Shown here: positions 3,995 through 19,479 of the stretch, one piece after another
Layout of the letters: the number at the start of each line of letters is the position of its first letter
Position numbering within the stretch: the first letter of the stretch is position 1
Virus record (IMG/VR): IMGVR_UViG_3300032047_000006
Span: 1 to 64,000 of that record
DNA from: a virus
DNA length: 64,000 bases
Direction: 5' to 3' (one strand)
Made by a program: the position numbers and the translations under genes
The notes under the pieces: model-generated
Database searches by the model: none
The model's input: the letters and a program-made list of their open reading frames with translations, nothing else
Told to the model about the DNA's origin: nothing

Positions 3995-4288
3995 ATGAAA
4001 ATCAAAAAAGAAGAATTATTAAAGATTATTAAAGAAGAAACCAAAAGGGTTTTGAGCGAAGGGCGCTATCATTTTGCGAACTCTTTCGGCGAACTTAACG
4101 TTTCGGAAGATCCAAGAGCGCAAGCATTTGAGCAGTGCATAAAGATTCTTAACGAATTAACCTACGACTCCCTAGAAGACGAGGTTGCTTCTATGGCTGA
4201 TGAAGCTGCTCGTGCGTTATGGAAAGCAGCAGAAGAATTAGATTATAAAAGAAATCAAGTTGGAAATCTTGAAGAAGGAGAAAAGTAA
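3995..4288 (+). CDS. small protein with capsid-targeting-like N terminus
   Basis: A 97-residue protein of unknown function. Its N terminus is a basic amphipathic helix (KKEELLKIIKEETKRVL) ending in L20-S-E22 followed by Gly. T4 internal head proteins carry a short N-terminal targeting helix removed by the prohead protease after an (L/I)xE site, and this looks alike. The remainder is acidic and helical. GGAG precedes the ATG. The stop codon overlaps the next ATG by one base (TAATG), so it is translationally coupled to the 4288 gene, which has the same kind of N terminus. I infer an internal head protein; an unrelated helical protein is possible. Confidence 0.75.
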   Translation: MKIKKEELLKIIKEETKRVLSEGRYHFANSFGELNVSEDPRAQAFEQCIKILNELTYDSLEDEVASMADEAARALWKAAEELDYKRNQVGNLEEGEK

Positions 4289-5196
4289 TGTCTAAGGTAA
4301 CAAAAACGGAAAAGATTTTGCGTAAGGCAACAGGTAAATGGGAAAAATTTCTCGCAGAAGGTGCTTTCAATCAAGCGCAAACACAAGAGCCCATCGACGA
4401 AGCAAGAATGGGTGAATACGGCAAGATTGATGCTCAGGACGGAAACCCTCCTACAAAGATTGGTCGAGGCAACGAAGAATACATGGCAGCTTATAACGCT
4501 GTGCTTCAAGCTAGAGGCGAAGAACCTCTTGACATTCAGAAGCCAGACCAAGCCTACCTTGACGCACTTCAGCAAGGCAGAATGAAACCTTCCGACCATA
4601 GCTATAACTTGGAAGAACAGGAAAAAAAAAGTTTTAAAGTAGGCGAGTTCGTCTATGTTGTTAATGGTTCACTTAAAGGTGCCAGCGGCAAGATTCTAGA
4701 ACCAATTACTACTTCAACTGGTGAAGAAGGTTTTGTTATTGAACTCTATTCCGACGCCAAGATGAAAGTCTTCGGCAAAAGAGGCGACGAAGTTATTGTT
4801 CTTCCAGGAGACTTAGAGTCAGGTGGTACAAGCGACGACATGGAACTCTACGACATCGACGAGCGTTCAGAAGACGACGAGCGTGATTTGGAAGAACCTG
4901 TAAAGTATGGCTCTGGTGCAGAGCTAGAGTGGGATGCTAAAGCGCAAAAGCACTACGATAGAAAGCGTGATATGTATATCGACGATAAGGAAGAAGAAGA
5001 CAATCTTACAAAGGAAGGTGCTGGACACGATGAATCTATCGCTCAAGCACAAAACCAAGGCGTTGCTTTTATTCGTGGCAGAGATGATAGAGCAGCAGGT
5101 AAGGAAAGAGATCCTAGTTTCTCTGAAGAAAGTGGACGTAATCCTTTAGAGGTTCTTTTTTATAATGCAGGATATGGCGATGAAAAAACTATTTGA
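4288..5196 (+). CDS. acidic protein with targeting-like N terminus and KOW/SH3-like segment
   Basis: A 302-residue acidic protein. The N terminus is a basic helix ending WEKFLAE (cleavage-like L22-A-E24 before Gly). Residues about 115-175 contain FKVGEFVYVVNG, LKGASGKI and a later VLPGDLE strand, which resembles the KOW/SH3-like fold used by ribosomal and NusG proteins. The rest is rich in Asp/Glu. Nine consecutive A residues at 4622-4630 sit just before this segment: slippage by one base either way meets a stop at once, giving a product of about 115 residues. The gene overlaps its neighbours at both ends (3995 and 5180). A virion-internal role is inferred from the N terminus and neighbours. 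Confidence 0.75.
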   Translation: MSKVTKTEKILRKATGKWEKFLAEGAFNQAQTQEPIDEARMGEYGKIDAQDGNPPTKIGRGNEEYMAAYNAVLQARGEEPLDIQKPDQAYLDALQQGRMKPSDHSYNLEEQEKKSFKVGEFVYVVNGSLKGASGKILEPITTSTGEEGFVIELYSDAKMKVFGKRGDEVIVLPGDLESGGTSDDMELYDIDERSEDDERDLEEPVKYGSGAELEWDAKAQKHYDRKRDMYIDDKEEEDNLTKEGAGHDESIAQAQNQGVAFIRGRDDRAAGKERDPSFSEESGRNPLEVLFYNAGYGDEKTI

Positions 5197-5857
5197 AAAC
5201 TGGCGTAAGTGGAATAAGACTCTTAATGAAGATTGGTATTCCGATGAGCACGAAACACGTGCAGACAAGGAATTCGCTGATTCTATGGATACTGGTGCTA
5301 CACATAGTTCTTACTCAGAAGATCCGGAATTTGATCAGATTCATGACATCTCTCTGGATTCTCTTGAGTCTGGTCCTATGGGAAGAAACTCCAACTTAGA
5401 TATTTCAGATATCGCACGACGGCTTGAAGCTCAGTCTTTTGATGTTGAGATTAATGCCGCCGGATTGGACATCGACGGCAAGTATCAAATCGGGCTTATG
5501 CGGGACTTACCTCCCCATAGCCGTAGACAGATTTCTAATACCCCTTTCGGCTTGTCATACATCCAAGATGGCGCTCCTGATGCGCTTCCTAAGCAGTCTG
5601 GTATGGGTAGAGCTGTTAACGAAGGTGCCATGGCTCCTTATAGAATTACGTTTAACGACAAAGTCGACTTAAATACAGTTCAAGAACTGTCGCTTGAAGT
5701 CATCGGTGTCGATGAAAAAATCTCTGACAACTCTAAAGAGGGTTTCGCTGAGATCGCAGCCACTCCAAAAGGAATCAAGCGAGTCGTTGACATTTTTAAG
5801 AAAAATGGTTTGCCAACAGACGTCATTACCAACGCCAAGGGCGAAAATATCCTATAA
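5180..5857 (+). CDS. protein with capsid-targeting-like N terminus
   Basis: A 225-residue protein of unknown function. I chose ATG 5180 rather than the in-frame ATG at 5165, because it places MKKLFENWRKWNKTLNE at the N terminus, a short basic helix ending L15-N-E17, and because AGGAT lies upstream at a usual distance. The body is acidic at first, then has a mixed alpha/beta region ending near the C terminus with a VDIFKKNGLPTDVI segment. The start overlaps the end of the 4288 gene, so the two are coupled. Grouped with 3995 and 4288 as candidate internal virion proteins. Confidence 0.7.
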   Translation: MKKLFENWRKWNKTLNEDWYSDEHETRADKEFADSMDTGATHSSYSEDPEFDQIHDISLDSLESGPMGRNSNLDISDIARRLEAQSFDVEINAAGLDIDGKYQIGLMRDLPPHSRRQISNTPFGLSYIQDGAPDALPKQSGMGRAVNEGAMAPYRITFNDKVDLNTVQELSLEVIGVDEKISDNSKEGFAEIAATPKGIKRVVDIFKKNGLPTDVITNAKGENIL

Positions 5858-11030: not shown

Positions 11031-11207
11031 ATGATTATAGAAAAATTCGAACAAATCATAAAAGACTTGACTCTGGCACAAGAGGACGCTGAAAAGTGTA
11101 ATAAGGGAAATGCTTCTGCCGGACGGAGACTAAGGAAGGTATCTCTTGATGCCATGAAGTCTCTTAAAGAGTTAAGGGCAATAATTATGGAGGAGATTAA
11201 GAAATGA
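11031..11207 (+). CDS. histone H1/Hc1-like small basic protein
   Basis: A 58-residue helical protein. KGNASAGRRLRKVSLDAMK followed by a second helix with KELRAIIMEE resembles the chlamydial Hc1/histone H1-like family, whose N-terminal part is a short helical hairpin with a KGN.(S/A)AG.R.RK signature. The long basic tail of full Hc1 is absent. AAAGGAG precedes the ATG, and the gene follows a late-promoter-like motif. The stop overlaps the next ATG (ATGA), coupling it to the 11204 gene, which carries a targeting-like N terminus. DNA condensation or packing in the head is inferred. Confidence 0.65.
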   Translation: MIIEKFEQIIKDLTLAQEDAEKCNKGNASAGRRLRKVSLDAMKSLKELRAIIMEEIKK

Positions 11208-11548
11208 ACATTTCTGGACAACTGTTAAAAAAGATCATTTTAGAAGAAGTCAAAAAAGCACTCTCTGAGAAGCCTGAAACTGCTCCTCCTGCTGGAGCGG
11301 GTTCTGACGCTGCTGGTACTGGCGTGGGCGTGGGAAGAGGCGTTGCTAAAGCCGCAGGCGTCAAGACAGATGTCGAGAACGCTTTTGAAATTATGTTAAA
11401 TGATAAGAAGCTTGCACCCCTAATGTCAAAGATAAATGATACTAGAGAGAAGGCTCAATTAATTGCCCTCTTAGTTAATCAATTCGATGATAAAAAAGAC
11501 GCCAGACAAGCTCTTACCTTGGCGCTCAAACTTATAAGTAAAAAATAA
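11204..11548 (+). CDS. small protein with capsid-targeting-like N terminus
   Basis: A 114-residue protein. Residues 1-22 form a basic amphipathic helix (LLKKIILEEVKKALSE) ending L20-S-E22, at exactly the same position as in the 3995 protein. A Pro/Ala/Gly-rich linker (about 23-55) leads to a helical C-terminal domain. This targeting helix, linker and cargo layout fits an internal head protein. GGAGG is about 9 bases before ATG. Function of the C-terminal domain is unknown. Confidence 0.75.
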   Translation: MNISGQLLKKIILEEVKKALSEKPETAPPAGAGSDAAGTGVGVGRGVAKAAGVKTDVENAFEIMLNDKKLAPLMSKINDTREKAQLIALLVNQFDDKKDARQALTLALKLISKK

Positions 11549-11549
11549 A

Positions 11550-13133
11550 ATGGAAAGTGAATTTCAAAAACTCCTAGCACATTTTTATAATTTTGCAAAA
11601 CAGAGGATTGGATTTTCCACGGACGCTACGATTCAGTTCATCAGCGATCCTGAAAATGCAATTAGCGTATTAGGTAAGACTGCTTATTATGATCCCTCAA
11701 GTATGAACGTTGCCGTTTACACAGATGGAAGGCATCCTAAGGATATTTTAAGATCTATTGCACACGAATTAGTTCATCACCGTCAAAATTGTGACGGCAA
11801 GATGGATAACCTAGCGCCCACCAAACCGGGATATGCCCAATCCGATGAAGTCCTTCGAGGCTTGGAAGCGGAGGCTTACCTACAAGGCAACATGTGCTTT
11901 AGGGATTGGGAAGACAACTATAAGTCAAATCCAAAAGTTCAAACTATTTATGAGAGTGTTAGAAAAAGCTTTATTAAGGAGAAATTACAAATGAGCACTA
12001 AAGGCGATTTAAGAAATATTGTAAAGGAGGCGGTTACTAAGGTTCTTAAAGAGAATCGTCTTGAGGAGATGGGATACGATGATCATGATGATTATGATGA
12101 TGATCCTTATATGAATGATTTGGAGAAGGAATTTCCTTTTTTGAAGGATAACCCACGAGGCAGGGCTTCAGACGCTCCCGCAGACATTCAACGTGATATG
12201 GATGATGAGTTCGGTGCCGACGAAGACGAAGACGAAATGATGGAAGGCATGTGTGCCTCCTGTGGAGAGTCTCCTTGTGGTTGTCCTATGGAAGAAGAGG
12301 TTGTCGCAGAAGGCGACGAGATGTCCAGAACAATTACACAGATTGAAAAAATCGGTGCTGAAATTTCTCAAATCGCAAAAATGTCCATTGATCCTGCTGT
12401 AGTTGAACGAATCGAAATGATTGATGACATGGTTACCGACGTTCTCGCACAAATGCAAGGTGTGGAACCTGGGTTTGACGCTGATGGATATAGTAAGATG
12501 CCAGGGCAGCGCCCGATGGAAGAAAAAACCACAGACAAGCACAACGACAATCCAGCACTTACAGGCGATCAGAAAGACGAACTTCCAGATCACCTTCAGA
12601 AAGCAATTATTGATTCCGAAGAAGAAGTAGACGAGGAAAAGTTATCTGCTTTTCAAAGAGATCTTCGCAGACGACAAGCAATGAAAGATGCTTACGACGA
12701 GCGAATGAGAAAAGAGAAAGAAGAACAAGAAGCAAACGAAGCTATTGAAGACGACATTACTTCTTCAGAAGACAGATATGGCGACATGAAGCACATCATC
12801 CCTGGTGTTCGTTTTACTGGCGACATCGAAACTGACGTTCGAGCAATGGAAGAAAACGAGGAACTTGCTGACTGGCTTTACGGCGAGTTAGGTTCTGGCG
12901 ACGTTGTTACTGATTCAGAAGGCAGAGTAGAATATACTGGTGCTGATGTTCAGGATTATCTTGACACAAGCGACGTAGAACTTCCAGACATTGCCGAGAC
13001 ACAAGAAGACTTCTATGCTCAAATGAGAACAGACGCAAGAACTCTTTCAGAAGATTGGAATAAAAGCATTCGCAATAAACGTTCTTCCCTTTTGAACGAA
13101 AGACTTATGAAGGCTTGGAACTTCAATAAATAA
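11550..13133 (+). CDS. HExxH metallopeptidase domain fused to an acidic, targeting-peptide-bearing protein
   Basis: A 527-residue frame with two parts. Residues 1-147 form a zincin-like domain with HELVHH at 72-77, preceded by a DGRHPKDILRSIA helix, a family seen in marine T4-like phages. At residue 148 there is an internal ATG (11991) with AAGGAG 9 bases upstream. It is followed by a basic helix ending L-K-E (KEAVTKVLKE), matching the N termini of neighbouring proteins. The C-terminal part is very acidic, with a Cys cluster (CASCGESPCGC, about residues 234-244). No stop separates the two parts, so both a fusion and a shorter internal product are possible. A strong terminator follows. Confidence 0.8.
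   Translation: MESEFQKLLAHFYNFAKQRIGFSTDATIQFISDPENAISVLGKTAYYDPSSMNVAVYTDGRHPKDILRSIAHELVHHRQNCDGKMDNLAPTKPGYAQSDEVLRGLEAEAYLQGNMCFRDWEDNYKSNPKVQTIYESVRKSFIKEKLQMSTKGDLRNIVKEAVTKVLKENRLEEMGYDDHDDYDDDPYMNDLEKEFPFLKDNPRGRASDAPADIQRDMDDEFGADEDEDEMMEGMCASCGESPCGCPMEEEVVAEGDEMSRTITQIEKIGAEISQIAKMSIDPAVVERIEMIDDMVTDVLAQMQGVEPGFDADGYSKMPGQRPMEEKTTDKHNDNPALTGDQKDELPDHLQKAIIDSEEEVDEEKLSAFQRDLRRRQAMKDAYDERMRKEKEEQEANEAIEDDITSSEDRYGDMKHIIPGVRFTGDIETDVRAMEENEELADWLYGELGSGDVVTDSEGRVEYTGADVQDYLDTSDVELPDIAETQEDFYAQMRTDARTLSEDWNKSIRNKRSSLLNERLMKAWNFNK
11991..13133 (+). CDS. possible internal translation product of the 11550 gene
   Basis: ATG 11991 has AAGGAG at 11976-11981, stronger than the ribosome site of the full frame, which relies on coupling to the upstream gene. 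The product would be 380 residues and begin MSTKGDLRNIVKEAVTKVL with LKE at 19-21, like the other targeting-type N termini. Whether both products are made cannot be told from sequence. Confidence 0.45.
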   Translation: MSTKGDLRNIVKEAVTKVLKENRLEEMGYDDHDDYDDDPYMNDLEKEFPFLKDNPRGRASDAPADIQRDMDDEFGADEDEDEMMEGMCASCGESPCGCPMEEEVVAEGDEMSRTITQIEKIGAEISQIAKMSIDPAVVERIEMIDDMVTDVLAQMQGVEPGFDADGYSKMPGQRPMEEKTTDKHNDNPALTGDQKDELPDHLQKAIIDSEEEVDEEKLSAFQRDLRRRQAMKDAYDERMRKEKEEQEANEAIEDDITSSEDRYGDMKHIIPGVRFTGDIETDVRAMEENEELADWLYGELGSGDVVTDSEGRVEYTGADVQDYLDTSDVELPDIAETQEDFYAQMRTDARTLSEDWNKSIRNKRSSLLNERLMKAWNFNK

Positions 13134-15495: not shown

Positions 15496-15765
15496 ATGTT
15501 AGATTTAAGAACAATGACGAAGAGGTTCATTATGAACGAGGGTGCTAAAAAACTCGTTGACTGGAAGTCTCTAGTTCAGTCTATCGACGAAGCCCTATCT
15601 TTGCTCAATCCAAAATCGCTCCGAGACTCACGCAGAATTGAGTTGGCGAGACACAATTTAAAAGAAGTAAAAAGTCACCTACGAAGAGCGAACGAGAGAG
15701 TCGCAACGCTAGAAGAGCAGCTTCGTGTTTTAGAAGAGAACGTAAAAGGAAAGAAGGATAAGTAA
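15496..15765 (+). CDS. small coiled-coil protein with targeting-like N terminus
   Basis: An 89-residue, basic, largely helical protein. The first 15 residues (LRTMTKRFIMNE, then Gly) resemble the targeting-type N termini of neighbours, with MNE in place of LxE. Residues about 50-85 form a heptad coiled coil (LRRANERVATLEEQLRVLEE). TTGGAGG is 6-7 bases before ATG. The stop is directly followed by the ATG of the 986-residue fusion gene, suggesting they are made together. Function unknown. Confidence 0.7.
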   Translation: MLDLRTMTKRFIMNEGAKKLVDWKSLVQSIDEALSLLNPKSLRDSRRIELARHNLKEVKSHLRRANERVATLEEQLRVLEENVKGKKDK

Positions 15766-18726
15766 ATGGGTGGATTAGGCGGACACGTAGATCATCTTTA
15801 TGACAATCCAGATTTATCATTCACGGATATGATAAAGATAATGCAAGCTGCTTCCAACGGTGAGATCACTGGTGGTGAAAAGCTCGATGGACAAAACCTC
15901 TTTGTTTCTTATTCTGTAAAGGACGGCAAAGCAAAAGCTGCACGAAATGTAGGTAATGTAAAGAAGGGTGGGATGGATGCAGAAGCACTCGCTGCTAAAT
16001 TTGCTGGACGTGGGACATTAGAGAAAGCATTCAATGGTGCCTTTGAAGCATTCGTTGATGCAGTCCAGCAATTATCAGACGACGTGAAAATAAAGGTTTT
16101 TGGTGCTGATGCTAACATATTTTATAATGCAGAAGTTATGGATCCCGATAATCCTAATATTATTAACTACAATTCTAAAAATCTTATTATCCATAGAGAT
16201 GGGCACGGCGAATATGATCGTGAATCAGGTAAAGTAACCGATAGAGATGTTTCTGCTGAAGCTAACTTACTCGGCAAAGCTCTGAAGAAAATCCAAAAGT
16301 CAGACAAAGAGGATTCTTTTGGCGTTGAAATGAAAGCAGTAGAACGTCTTCGTGCTCTTTCGGATGATAAAGCTCTCACAACAGCAGTTAGTAGGCTTAA
16401 AAAATTACTCGCTGCCTCACAAGTGGGTGAGGGCGCTACTGTTGGGGAGTATATTATCTCCAAATTGGATGCCCTTGTTGAAAGAATGTTTCCAGACTTA
16501 GAAGAAACTACTAAAAAGATGCTTCTTCAAAGAATGTTTGGCGTAAAAGGCGTTACTGCAACACAAATATATAAAACTATCAAGGATCCAGAGGTTAAAA
16601 TTGCTGTTAAGTCCTTTATTAAAGATGATAAGAGAGTCCGAAAGGAAATTATTTATCCTCTCGAAGATATTGTTCATGACTTTGCAGTCGAAATGCTCGA
16701 TGGTTTGAAGTCAAGATTTGTTCTTTCTCACAAGGATGAGATAAATCGGATGGCAGACAGACTTGAACAAGCCATTTCAGATATTGAGTCCGCCGGTGAT
16801 GATACAAAGATACAAAAATTGAAAGCGGGGCTTGGCAAGTTAAAGAGTTTGGACAAAATCTCCTCTTCTATGGAAGGTTTTGTGTTCGCTTTCAATGGAC
16901 ACACTTATAAATTAACGGGATCATTCGCCCCTGTTAATCAAATTATGGGATTGTTGCCGTGGGAAGATAAAAAAGGCTCCGACTTAAACGAAGAATCTTC
17001 TGGTGGCAAGCGAATTGGGCTTTTTCCTGGCAAATTCAAGCCACCACACGCAGGACACTTCCTCGGTGCGAAAGAAATGATTGATTCTTACGATGCAGAT
17101 GTAGTCTTTATTATTATCTCCAAGAAATCTGTCAAAAGAGAGACTGAGGGCGGGCTATTTATTGTTTCGCCTGAAGTTTCCGAGAAGATGTGGAATACAT
17201 ATATCGATGAGAATGGGTATAATGGTAAGATCGTCCCGATCACGTCTAAATATCCCTCTCCCATTGTGGATACCTACGAAATGTTGAAAGAATTTAGCCC
17301 AGGGACATCAGTTTTGGTTTCAAAGGGAGAAAAAGATGGCGCAGACGCTCGATTTGATAGAATGGAGAAGTTTATTGCAAAAAACAACCTACCTGTGAAG
17401 GCTGTCCAAGTAGATGGCTCGATGTCGGACACTGGTGCGACTGGTACTTTACTTGGAAACGCTATTGCCAACCGTGATATCGAATCTTTTAAGAAAATGG
17501 TGCCTCTTTCAGGATCTTCAGCTATGAAGCTTTGGGAAGAAATCGTCAGCCAGGTTATAGACGAAGATTTTGACTTATATTCTCAGCCCGAGACTGCCGT
17601 TTTGAGTGAAGTTTGGAGAATGATTGATGAAGCACTCGAAATAGATGCAAAAGACACTCCGAGTGGACAACTCGGCGGTCCAGCGTCTGTTGATATTGAT
17701 GATGCCAGTGGTGACGATGAACAGGACGCAAATATTATTAAGAAAGGGGGTGATAATTCATCGACTGAAGTCGAGATTGTTACTAAAACTGTTGTTTCTG
17801 TCGACGTCACCACTGGTAAAGCTACCGTTGTCAACAAAGTAGAGGAATCTGAGGATTCTTCTAAAGAGATTATGCGTGAAGTCGATGCTAACGCAGACAG
17901 AGGCATCATCAACCTAGAAGATGGGCTAGGTATTTCTAGAAATGAGCTTCCTCAAATTAAGTCCGCCGATGTTTCAGAATTTATTGAGTGGTTGGACGGA
18001 CAAGGGATGGATAGTTTCAGTACTTCATTCCCAGTGGGTGGATTGAAGCCTGTTCAAAAAGAAATTAATTTAGAAAAAGTCTTTTCCATGGCTGAAAAAC
18101 ACCAGGCTGGTGAAATAGATCTTTCTAAAGGTAAGCCCTTAATGACTTCTAGTGACGAATATATTATAGATGGACATCATAGATGGTATGCTCTCCGTGA
18201 ATTAGATCCAAAGAACGAAATTGATATTATTATGATTGATGCTTCTGCAAGAAAGCTTATTGAGTTTATGAAAGAGTTTCCAAAGACTTCCTATAAGCAA
18301 ACTACTGATGAAAACCTTTATGAATCATCTTATGGTAAAGTAGGTGGTGAAAAAGAAGTTGTTAACGTCGGAAAGATGAAAATAGTTATTGATATAGAAA
18401 ACATGGATCTCGAACCTTCCAAGCATGGAGAAGAAAGAAGGTTTCGTCACGGAAAAGGTAAAACTATTTCAAAAGATGCTATCTTGCAAGCAGCCGAACG
18501 TGGCTTGGGCTTGATTATTCAAGATTATGCGAACGGTGAAATATCAAATGGGGAAGCTTTCGTTATTAGGCACAAAGCAAATGCTAAAACACCTGCATTG
18601 AATTTGGTTGGTGCTTTAGAAATGAGGAAGGGTCCTGATACAATGAAAATTATTACTGTAATGAGAAAAGATGATTTCAAAACCGATAACTTCGGTGGCG
18701 GACAACAAAAAACTTATAATATTTGA
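15766..18726 (+). CDS. multidomain fusion: ligase-like nucleotidyltransferase, NMNAT/cytidylyltransferase-like and ParB-like domains
   Basis: A 986-residue protein. Residues 1-400 look like a covalent nucleotidyltransferase (RNA/DNA ligase type): motif I EKLDGQN with K39, R60 in RNVG, motif III-like NAEVM at 121-125, EGFVF at 370-374 and YKLTG near 380. From about 415 an adenylyl/cytidylyltransferase fold begins: GLFPGKFKPPHAGH with HxGH at 428-431, and a GSSAMK motif near 586 in place of ISSTxxR. An acidic linker follows. Residues about 740-850 contain DGHHRWYAL (802-809), typical of ParB/Srx-type nuclease domains. The C-terminal 120 residues are unassigned. The gene lies among head/late genes. 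RNA repair, NAD metabolism or a virion enzyme are possible; none is proved. Confidence 0.8.
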   Translation: MGGLGGHVDHLYDNPDLSFTDMIKIMQAASNGEITGGEKLDGQNLFVSYSVKDGKAKAARNVGNVKKGGMDAEALAAKFAGRGTLEKAFNGAFEAFVDAVQQLSDDVKIKVFGADANIFYNAEVMDPDNPNIINYNSKNLIIHRDGHGEYDRESGKVTDRDVSAEANLLGKALKKIQKSDKEDSFGVEMKAVERLRALSDDKALTTAVSRLKKLLAASQVGEGATVGEYIISKLDALVERMFPDLEETTKKMLLQRMFGVKGVTATQIYKTIKDPEVKIAVKSFIKDDKRVRKEIIYPLEDIVHDFAVEMLDGLKSRFVLSHKDEINRMADRLEQAISDIESAGDDTKIQKLKAGLGKLKSLDKISSSMEGFVFAFNGHTYKLTGSFAPVNQIMGLLPWEDKKGSDLNEESSGGKRIGLFPGKFKPPHAGHFLGAKEMIDSYDADVVFIIISKKSVKRETEGGLFIVSPEVSEKMWNTYIDENGYNGKIVPITSKYPSPIVDTYEMLKEFSPGTSVLVSKGEKDGADARFDRMEKFIAKNNLPVKAVQVDGSMSDTGATGTLLGNAIANRDIESFKKMVPLSGSSAMKLWEEIVSQVIDEDFDLYSQPETAVLSEVWRMIDEALEIDAKDTPSGQLGGPASVDIDDASGDDEQDANIIKKGGDNSSTEVEIVTKTVVSVDVTTGKATVVNKVEESEDSSKEIMREVDANADRGIINLEDGLGISRNELPQIKSADVSEFIEWLDGQGMDSFSTSFPVGGLKPVQKEINLEKVFSMAEKHQAGEIDLSKGKPLMTSSDEYIIDGHHRWYALRELDPKNEIDIIMIDASARKLIEFMKEFPKTSYKQTTDENLYESSYGKVGGEKEVVNVGKMKIVIDIENMDLEPSKHGEERRFRHGKGKTISKDAILQAAERGLGLIIQDYANGEISNGEAFVIRHKANAKTPALNLVGALEMRKGPDTMKIITVMRKDDFKTDNFGGGQQKTYNI

Positions 18727-18735
18727 GGGATAAAT

Positions 18736-19479
18736 ATGTTTGATAGAGAACAAATGATTGAAGAGATTAGAATCAGGGATATGGTGGCAAGAGCCGTCCG
18801 TGTTCGTGCGAAGAAATTAAGAGAAAGTATCGCCAAGGAAGAAAATGAACTTAGGAACATTATCAGAGGATTGATTCAAGAAGCATCTAGCGACAAGGTT
18901 CAACATCGTTCTACTGGTATCAACGTTCTAGAAGATCTTCTTAAAAAGATTATTCCTGTTTTAGAACAAGATTATAAAATGCTCACCACTGATGCCAAAC
19001 AGAGAAGATCCTTCTCTGCCCACATCGTGACTGCTGTGCAAAATTCTCTCTCTCCCCTGGATATTACAAAAGCTGCTAATTCAAAAGGCATGATCAGCGT
19101 CGACGAAATCTCAGACATCGATGAAATTGAAGTTGTTGTTGGAGATGACGAAGGCGCATTCATTGATATTGATGCCGACGGTGAAGAAACACCTTTTCAA
19201 GATCTAGAGGGCGAGGACAGGACAGGTAACAATTTTGCTCAAGCAACCTTTGATAAAATAGAGACTCAAATAAAGGATGCTTTCAGTCTTCTTGGAAATG
19301 AAGAGGATCAAGAATTATTTAGCACCTATTTGATTACAAACATTAAATTATATTTTGATATGTTCGAGGATGAGTTAAAGGATAGCATCGTCGAGCCATC
19401 TAATGACGAATACGAAGAAGAAAAGGCTTCTGATGAAGATACTAATGATGAATCTGACACAGAAGAGCTAGAACTATAA
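18736..19479 (+). CDS. acidic hypothetical protein
   Basis: A 247-residue protein. The first 50 residues are basic and helical (ELRNIIRGLIQEAS), with a LIQE segment that resembles the processing-type LxE/IxE sites of neighbours though placed deeper. The rest is strongly acidic, ending in a Glu/Asp tail. GAGGG lies about 9 bases before ATG. It follows the fusion gene by 9 bases, so it is in the same operon. Role unknown; a scaffold or internal head protein would fit the composition. Confidence 0.65.
   Translation: MFDREQMIEEIRIRDMVARAVRVRAKKLRESIAKEENELRNIIRGLIQEASSDKVQHRSTGINVLEDLLKKIIPVLEQDYKMLTTDAKQRRSFSAHIVTAVQNSLSPLDITKAANSKGMISVDEISDIDEIEVVVGDDEGAFIDIDADGEETPFQDLEGEDRTGNNFAQATFDKIETQIKDAFSLLGNEEDQELFSTYLITNIKLYFDMFEDELKDSIVEPSNDEYEEEKASDEDTNDESDTEELEL

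What the first reader, a model, noticed from the sequence alone, without database searches (positions are those of the whole stretch)
15766..18726. 986-residue fusion with ligase-like, NMNAT-like and ParB-like motifs
One chain carries K39-containing motif I and NAEVM/EGFVF/YKLTG motifs of covalent nucleotidyltransferases, an HxGH adenylyl/cytidylyltransferase site and a DGHHRWYAL ParB-like site. Such a chain could join end repair with nucleotide or NAD chemistry, or counter NAD-depleting defences. It lies among late genes, so it might be packaged or injected.
Basis: partly seen in the sequence, partly recalled or inferred. Interest (0 to 1): 0.75.

Follow-up and report, generated by a model that had tools for sequence, protein, structure and literature searches.

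The report
Head-packaged phage ligase-like polyprotein
A large marine T4-like phage encodes one long protein joining an RNA-ligase-like enzyme, a nucleotide-transferring enzyme, a ParB-like domain and a toxin-like RNase fold, and its relatives carry signs of being packed in the phage head, cut apart there and probably delivered into the host.

Summary
In detail: an intact 986-aa ORF carries all three motif sets. The 1-400 domain has no Pfam match, but all five ligase signatures (K39, R60, E123, E370-G371, K382) are conserved in 60-61 of 61 relatives. Its confident AlphaFold model (pLDDT 90) finds RNA ligases first. Residues 412-600 are a HIGH-superfamily nucleotidyltransferase (profile E 2.6e-6 to an NMNAT), but this clade has lost the second-motif Arg. 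Residues 713-850 have the ParB/Srx fold. The same ligase, HIGH-NTase and ParB domains occur in reverse order in a huge phage, and in NTase-ligase order in a Microcystis phage: functional coupling. In 29 of 29 relatives with a leader, it ends [LIVM]xE immediately before the conserved GG start; [LI]xE also precedes the fourth domain. This is the T4 prohead-protease motif, and the genome encodes that protease. Cyanophage relatives of the NTase part have been found in virions by mass spectrometry. Best reading: a head-packaged polyvalent protein, sectioned by prohead protease, carrying a new ligase-like family probably for nucleic-acid repair early in infection. NAD chemistry is not supported. Substrate unproven.

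The parts
15766..18726 (+). 986-aa ORF, four-domain chain
15766..16965 (+). Domain 1 (res. 1-400): covalent-nucleotidyltransferase (RNA-ligase-like) domain with a large helical insertion (about res. 163-360) between motifs III and IV
   Evidence: A2 conservation, AF2 pLDDT 89.9, Foldseek
15877..15897 (+). Motif I EKLDGQN (res. 38-44), K39 predicted AMP acceptor
   Evidence: 61/61 conserved
15943..15945 (+). R60, 21 residues after the motif I Lys
   Evidence: 61/61 conserved
16120..16140 (+). Motif III FYNAEVM (res. 119-125), E123
   Evidence: E in 60/61, D in 1
16873..16887 (+). Motif IV EGFVF (res. 370-374)
   Evidence: E370, G371, V373, F374 61/61
16906..16920 (+). Motif V YKLTG (res. 381-385)
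   Evidence: Y381, K382, T384, G385 61/61
16999..17565 (+). Domain 2 (res. about 412-600): HIGH-superfamily nucleotidyltransferase
   Evidence: profile vs PDB: MJ0541 NMNAT E 2.6e-6; cyanophage cytidyltransferase E 1.3e-7, Z 1000
17047..17058 (+). HAGH (HxGH) site, res. 428-431
   Evidence: H431 38/38, H428 36/38
17437..17457 (+). Second HIGH motif ATGTLLG (res. 558-564); the usual Arg is Gly in this clade
   Evidence: R in 33/38, G in 3/38
17902..18315 (+). Domain 3 (res. about 713-850): ParB/sulfiredoxin-like, DGHHRW at 18169-18186
   Evidence: phrog_2859 E 7.9e-27; Foldseek ParB-N/Srx prob 1.0
18316..18324 (+). LYE (res. 851-853): candidate prohead-protease site before domain 4
   Evidence: [LIVM]xE at this border in almost all contexts inspected, fused or standalone
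18331..18723 (+).
   Evidence: A5, AF2, weak RelE/HigB/YoeB Foldseek hits, standalone homologues with leader
15496..15765 (+). 89-aa upstream neighbour; leader ...TKRFIMNE|G like a T4 capsid-targeting sequence; conserved in 29 loci
18736..19479 (+). 247-aa downstream neighbour with [LI]xE before the QHRSTGIN core; conserved in 38 loci; fused onto the ligase-NTase protein in L008 and L009
11550..13133 (+). HELVHH (zincin-like) protein; family found upstream in 43 loci

Best explanation
The chain is a polyvalent protein of a T4-like phage, built to be carried in the head. Shown: domain 1 is a new family with the motifs and predicted fold of covalent nucleotidyltransferases, nearest to RNA ligases; domain 2 is a HIGH-superfamily nucleotidyltransferase; domain 3 is ParB/Srx-like. 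Probable: domain 4 is RelE/BECR-like. Inferred: the protein enters the prohead core with neighbouring internal proteins and the T4-type prohead protease cuts it at [LI]xE sites, freeing domain 4 and in many relatives exposing a GG N terminus (in this clade the chain starts MGG, so Met removal would give the same end). Inferred: the pieces enter the host with the DNA. Most likely mechanism (inference): K39 takes AMP from a nucleotide and domain 1 adenylates and seals nucleic-acid ends, most likely RNA broken by host defence nucleases, with domain 2 as a partner acting on a phosphate-bearing nucleotide; domains 3 and 4 act on nucleic acids of the host or of competitors.
For: Fold: Foldseek PDB top hits are archaeal Rnl3 (8ucg E 7e-3, prob 0.87), T4 Rnl1, a tRNA ligase, then DNA ligases and capping enzymes; the viral library gives RNA ligases at E 1e-4. 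Motifs invariant in 61. hhalign against T4 Rnl2, though not significant, puts K39 on EKIHGTN. Coupling: ligase-NTase-ParB here, ParB-NTase-ligase in L234 (E 4e-62, 1.4e-8 and 5e-19 for ligase, NTase and ParB), NTase-ligase in Mel-JY01. Packaging: 29/29 leaders [LIVM]xE|GG, the other 30 placed members MGG; [LIVM]xE before domain 4 whether fused or standalone; flanking genes with [LI]xE sites; protease phrog_207 in this genome (E 1e-58) and in 18/20 related records; T4 gp21 cuts after L/I-x-E (PMC9026906); cyanophage cytidylyltransferase T4-GC190 and S-CREM2 ORF154 detected in virions (PMC3037559, PMC10665884), with the domain-2 profile matching a cyanophage protein of that kind at E 1.3e-7.
Against: No PDB fold hit for domain 1 passes E 0.001 (large helical insertion). 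Sequence profiles alone do not reach any ligase. This member has no leader peptide. [LI]xE is short and common. Virion detection is for divergent relatives, and the cyanophage ligase-like partner DUF6267 is tied to this family only by fold (E 3.7e-5), shared architecture and motif placement. The second HIGH-motif Arg is lost. The cellular role is inferred.
Confidence: 0.6

Rival explanations
1. It is a virion-carried or late-expressed DNA ligase that seals nicks in phage DNA, replacing the missing T4 gp30.
For: No NAD- or ATP-dependent DNA ligase family match in 15 related records of 147-191 kb, so this is the only ligase-like enzyme detected there; DNA ligases also appear among fold matches.
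Against: Motif I has Asn rather than Arg at the DNA-ligase position (established knowledge); no OB-fold domain follows; RNA ligases rank above DNA ligases; a host ligase could serve.
Confidence: 0.2
2. It is an NAD enzyme: domain 2 makes NAD+ from NMN and ATP, either feeding an NAD+-using ligase domain or refilling NAD+ against depleting defences.
For: The best PDB profile match is an NMNAT; an NAD+-using ligase releases NMN, which an NMNAT would recycle.
Against: PPATs match almost as well; the SxTxxR Arg is lost here; no NadV in 15 relatives, whereas every NadM-bearing phage has NadV according to PMC9503650; no NAD-binding Ia domain seen; a subgroup has degenerate GRFQPMGxHH instead of HxGH.
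Confidence: 0.12
3. It is an ordinary cytoplasmic late enzyme, not packaged; leader and [LI]xE patterns are incidental.
For: This member starts MGG with no leader; 30 of 59 placed members do.
Against: 29/29 leaders end [LIVM]xE exactly at the domain start; the same at the domain 4 border in standalone and fused forms; virion detection of cyanophage relatives.
Confidence: 0.2
4. Domain 1 is active on a non-nucleic-acid target (for example protein AMPylation) or is a structural pseudoenzyme.
For: A huge helical insertion and no recognised nucleic-acid-binding C-terminal module; T4 Rnl1 also serves as tail-fibre attachment catalyst (T4 annotation).
Against: All catalytic residues are invariant, which argues against a pseudoenzyme.
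Confidence: 0.15

Closest known systems
DUF6267 (PF19782) plus cytidylyltransferase (T4-GC190) of T4-like cyanophages, e.g. S-PM2p141/p142
   Same: HxxHLxD then KxDG, motif IV/V-like end, then a HIGH NTase; fold match E 3.7e-5 to an S-PM2 protein; NTase part detected in virions.
   Different: No Pfam DUF6267 match and no significant profile match for this family; cyanophage genes are often split in two; no ParB or RelE-like tail seen there.
RNA ligases (archaeal Rnl3, T4 Rnl1, T4 Rnl2)
   Same: Motif order and predicted fold.
   Different: No PF09414 match; helical insertion between motifs III and IV; single Lys in motif V; followed by a HIGH NTase instead of a ligase C-terminal domain.
Polyvalent proteins (Iyer et al. 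2017, PMC5512222)
   Same: Several effector domains in one phage protein including ParB- and BECR-type domains.
   Different: In the passages read there, ligases are not listed as a polyvalent component; no MPTase or MuF domain here; a prohead-protease cutting pattern is added.
T4 internal head proteins (IPI-III, Alt)
   Same: Relatives have a leader ending L/I-x-E; prohead protease in genome; probable delivery with DNA.
   Different: This member has no leader; it is a multi-enzyme chain with internal sites.
Microcystis phage Mel-JY01 WWT39297.1
   Same: Ligase domain E 2.5e-74, HIGH NTase E 1.9e-9.
   Different: Order NTase-ligase, with IIAE|GG between the two; no ParB or RelE-like domain.

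Membership tests
Covalent nucleotidyltransferase superfamily | Motif I KxDG with invariant Lys | tested here: met
   61/61
Covalent nucleotidyltransferase superfamily | Motifs III (Glu), IV (EGxV), V (Lys) in order | tested here: met
   E123 60/61; E370, G371, K382 61/61; motif V has one Lys, not KxK
Covalent nucleotidyltransferase superfamily | Nucleotidyltransferase fold | tested here: met
   AF2 pLDDT 89.9; Foldseek top hits all in the superfamily, though E at best 7e-3 in PDB and 1.2e-4 to viral RNA ligases
Covalent nucleotidyltransferase superfamily | Lys-AMP formation | not testable with these tools
   needs assay
DNA ligase / capping enzyme | C-terminal OB-fold with motif VI | tested here: not met
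   a HIGH NTase follows domain 1 directly
RNA_ligase PF09414 | Match to the Pfam model | tested here: not met
   not among the families listed for 61 members
DUF6267 PF19782 | Match to the Pfam model | tested here: not met
   hhalign P 0.046
HIGH-superfamily nucleotidyltransferase | HxGH site and homologous profile | tested here: met
HIGH-superfamily nucleotidyltransferase | Second motif (S/T)xTxxR | tested here: not met
   Arg replaced by Gly in this clade; present in 33/38
NMNAT (NAD synthesis) | NMN + ATP to NAD+ | not testable with these tools
   profile does not separate NMNAT from PPAT
ParB/sulfiredoxin superfamily | Fold and DGHHR-type site | tested here: met
   Foldseek prob 1.0; DGHHRW invariant in 7 members
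PBECR / RelE-like RNase | His in N-terminal helix, Ser/Thr in late strand, RelE-like fold | tested here: inconclusive
   H887 and T964 invariant, topology fits, only weak toxin hits, DUF4258 weak in 3/12
T4-type internal head protein | N-terminal leader ending L/I-x-E | tested here: not met
   this member starts MGG after an in-frame stop; many relatives meet it
T4-type internal head protein | Prohead protease in the same genome | tested here: met
   phrog_207 E 1e-58 at G000:C1:78015-78629
T4-type internal head protein | Presence in virion and cleavage | not testable with these tools
   only literature on divergent cyanophage relatives
Polyvalent protein | Two or more conflict/effector-type domains in one phage chain | tested here: met
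   four domains

The most novel reading that the evidence does not exclude
A new family of covalent nucleotidyltransferases, regularly paired with a HIGH-superfamily nucleotidyltransferase (three domain orders found), is loaded into T4-like heads as a polyprotein, cut into separate effectors by the prohead protease, and delivered as a ready-made nucleic-acid repair and attack kit; its two nucleotidyltransferases carry out a joint reaction not yet described.
Probability: 0.35. Interest if true: 0.82.

Novelty: new variant of a known kind. Interest (0 to 1): 0.63.

Why it matters
The ligase-like family and its HIGH partner are widespread in large T4-like phages (154 related stretches in IMG/VR in one scan), yet the ligase-like part has no Pfam family. 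If right, it gives a function class to cyanophage DUF6267 and explains why a 'cytidylyltransferase' is a virion protein of marine cyanophages. It also suggests that the prohead protease can be used to section one gene product into several delivered effectors, which N-terminal proteomics can test directly.

Tried and rejected
Sequence-only proof of the ligase fold failed: hmmsearch of A1 and A2 against PDB, Pfam on 61 members, hhalign to T4 Rnl2, Rnl1 and gp30; the structure model was needed. hhalign to DUF6267 was not significant. A cellular ancestor was sought in GTDB contigs: only two MAG loci. NAD salvage partners: none. Papers on DUF6267: none held. The ParB profile against PDB gave only weak, mixed hits, resolved by structure. 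'GRFQPMGxHH' members were left out of A3 because their HIGH motif is degenerate.

Full report
Check. The ORF at 15766-18726 is real, 986 aa, begins at ATG immediately after an in-frame stop, and has full-length relatives.

Domain 1 (1-400). An alignment of 61 nonredundant members (A2) keeps E38, K39, D41, G42, N44, R60, E370, G371, V373, F374, Y381, K382, T384 and G385 in every sequence and E123 in 60. No Pfam ligase or DUF6267 model matches and sequence profiles do not reach ligases in PDB. AlphaFold2 gave pLDDT 89.9, pTM 0.87: K39 ends a strand, motifs III, IV and V lie on strands, and about 200 mostly helical residues are inserted between III and IV. Foldseek against PDB ranks archaeal Rnl3, T4 Rnl1, a tRNA ligase, a DNA ligase (6rar), a capping enzyme and T4 Rnl2 in the first dozen places. 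No E-value passes 0.001, but the unanimity is strong. Against viral models, hits beyond the family itself include an S-PM2 'cytidyltransferase-like' protein (E 3.7e-5) and viral RNA ligases (E 1.2e-4). The Asn five residues after the motif I Lys and R60 resemble Rnl2/Rnl3 (own knowledge; the non-significant hhalign to T4 Rnl2 places K39 on EKIHGTN).

Domain 2. Profile A3 finds MJ0541 NMNAT at 2.6e-6, NaMNAT at 7.7e-6 and several PPATs. It matches the cyanophage cytidyltransferase of Sf-FP1 at 1.3e-7 with Z set to 1000. The window clade has Gly where 33 of 38 have the Arg of the second motif.

Domains 3 and 4. The model of 707-986 (pLDDT 83) gives ParB-N and sulfiredoxin matches at probability about 1.0, and for the C-terminal part only weak YoeB/HigB-type toxin matches. 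Domain 4 has the PBECR pattern described in PMC5512222 (His in the N-terminal helix, Ser/Thr late), invariant in 12 members; the RelE/BECR call is probable, not proven.

Domain coupling. Ligase-NTase is the usual order. Mel-JY01 has NTase-ligase. A huge uncultured phage (L234) has ParB (18-125, E 5e-19), NTase (134-330, E 1.4e-8) and ligase (509-914, E 4e-62), the mirror image of the window protein. L188 joins a HIGH-type motif and ParB without the ligase. Repeated rejoining in different orders argues for joint function.

Packaging. Of 59 placed members, 30 start M-GG and 29 carry a leader; all 29 leaders end [LIVM]xE directly before GG (GA in one), 28 of them [LI]xE. T4 gp21 cuts after L/I-x-E (PMC9026906). 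Domain 4 occurs alone behind leaders such as MKKLMTEWRKYIKEE, and in fusions it is preceded by LYE, LDE, LNE, IEE, LKE or LQE. The upstream 89-aa family has leaders such as MTRKFLLGE, and the 247-aa family has [LIVM]xE before its core in 26 of 26 scored members; for the 89-aa family 20 of 27 have [LI]xE in range against 28% of background ORFs. This genome encodes the protease next to terminase and portal genes, and 18 of 20 related records have it too. Cyanophage T4-GC190 was detected in S-SM1 virions (PMC3037559) and a cytidylyltransferase in S-CREM2 virions (PMC10665884). In S-PM2 the DUF6267 and NTase parts are adjacent or joined.

Function. No canonical DNA ligase, NadV or clear PF09414 ligase is detectable in 15 large relatives' records (one sub-threshold PF09414 hit in Mel-JY01). 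That disfavours NAD synthesis and leaves RNA repair first and DNA sealing second. Which substrate is joined, and what domain 2 does, is inference.

Caveats. Virion evidence is from divergent relatives; [LI]xE is short; this member lacks a leader; the DUF6267 link rests on fold, architecture and motif placement; members counted are related by descent, so counts are not independent.

Noticed in passing
window 3995-5857 and 11204-11548: Small ORFs with leaders such as ...GKWEKFLAE|GAF, MKKLFENWRKWNKTLNE|DW...TKRVLSE|GR and ...KKALSE|KP look like further capsid-targeted internal head proteins.
   Followed up: partly
window 11550-13133 and relatives: HELVHH protein family found upstream of the ligase gene in 43 loci; many members end in a C-terminal motif like RLMKAWNFNK or ELMKRWFSKK, possibly a C-terminal targeting tag.
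   Followed up: partly
L130-L198: Standalone ParB-like proteins of other phages begin with MKKFRNFVTE, MKSFKTFIQE and similar, close in style to the T4 capsid-targeting sequence.
   Followed up: partly
L008, L009, L010, L048, L080, L095 and others: A recurrent linker [LI]xE-(M/I/A)S(A/S)MxxGxVxG lies downstream of the HIGH NTase domain; function unknown, perhaps another cut site.
   Followed up: no
L226 (CP070664.1): The ligase-NTase gene sits in a 2.8-Mb 'WOR-3' MAG chromosome near bacterial-looking genes; prophage or misassembly.
   Followed up: no
L009, L011, L041, L053, L060, L071, L072, L077, L079, L083, L087: A subgroup has GRFQPMGxHH in place of HxGH, losing the first His.
   Followed up: partly
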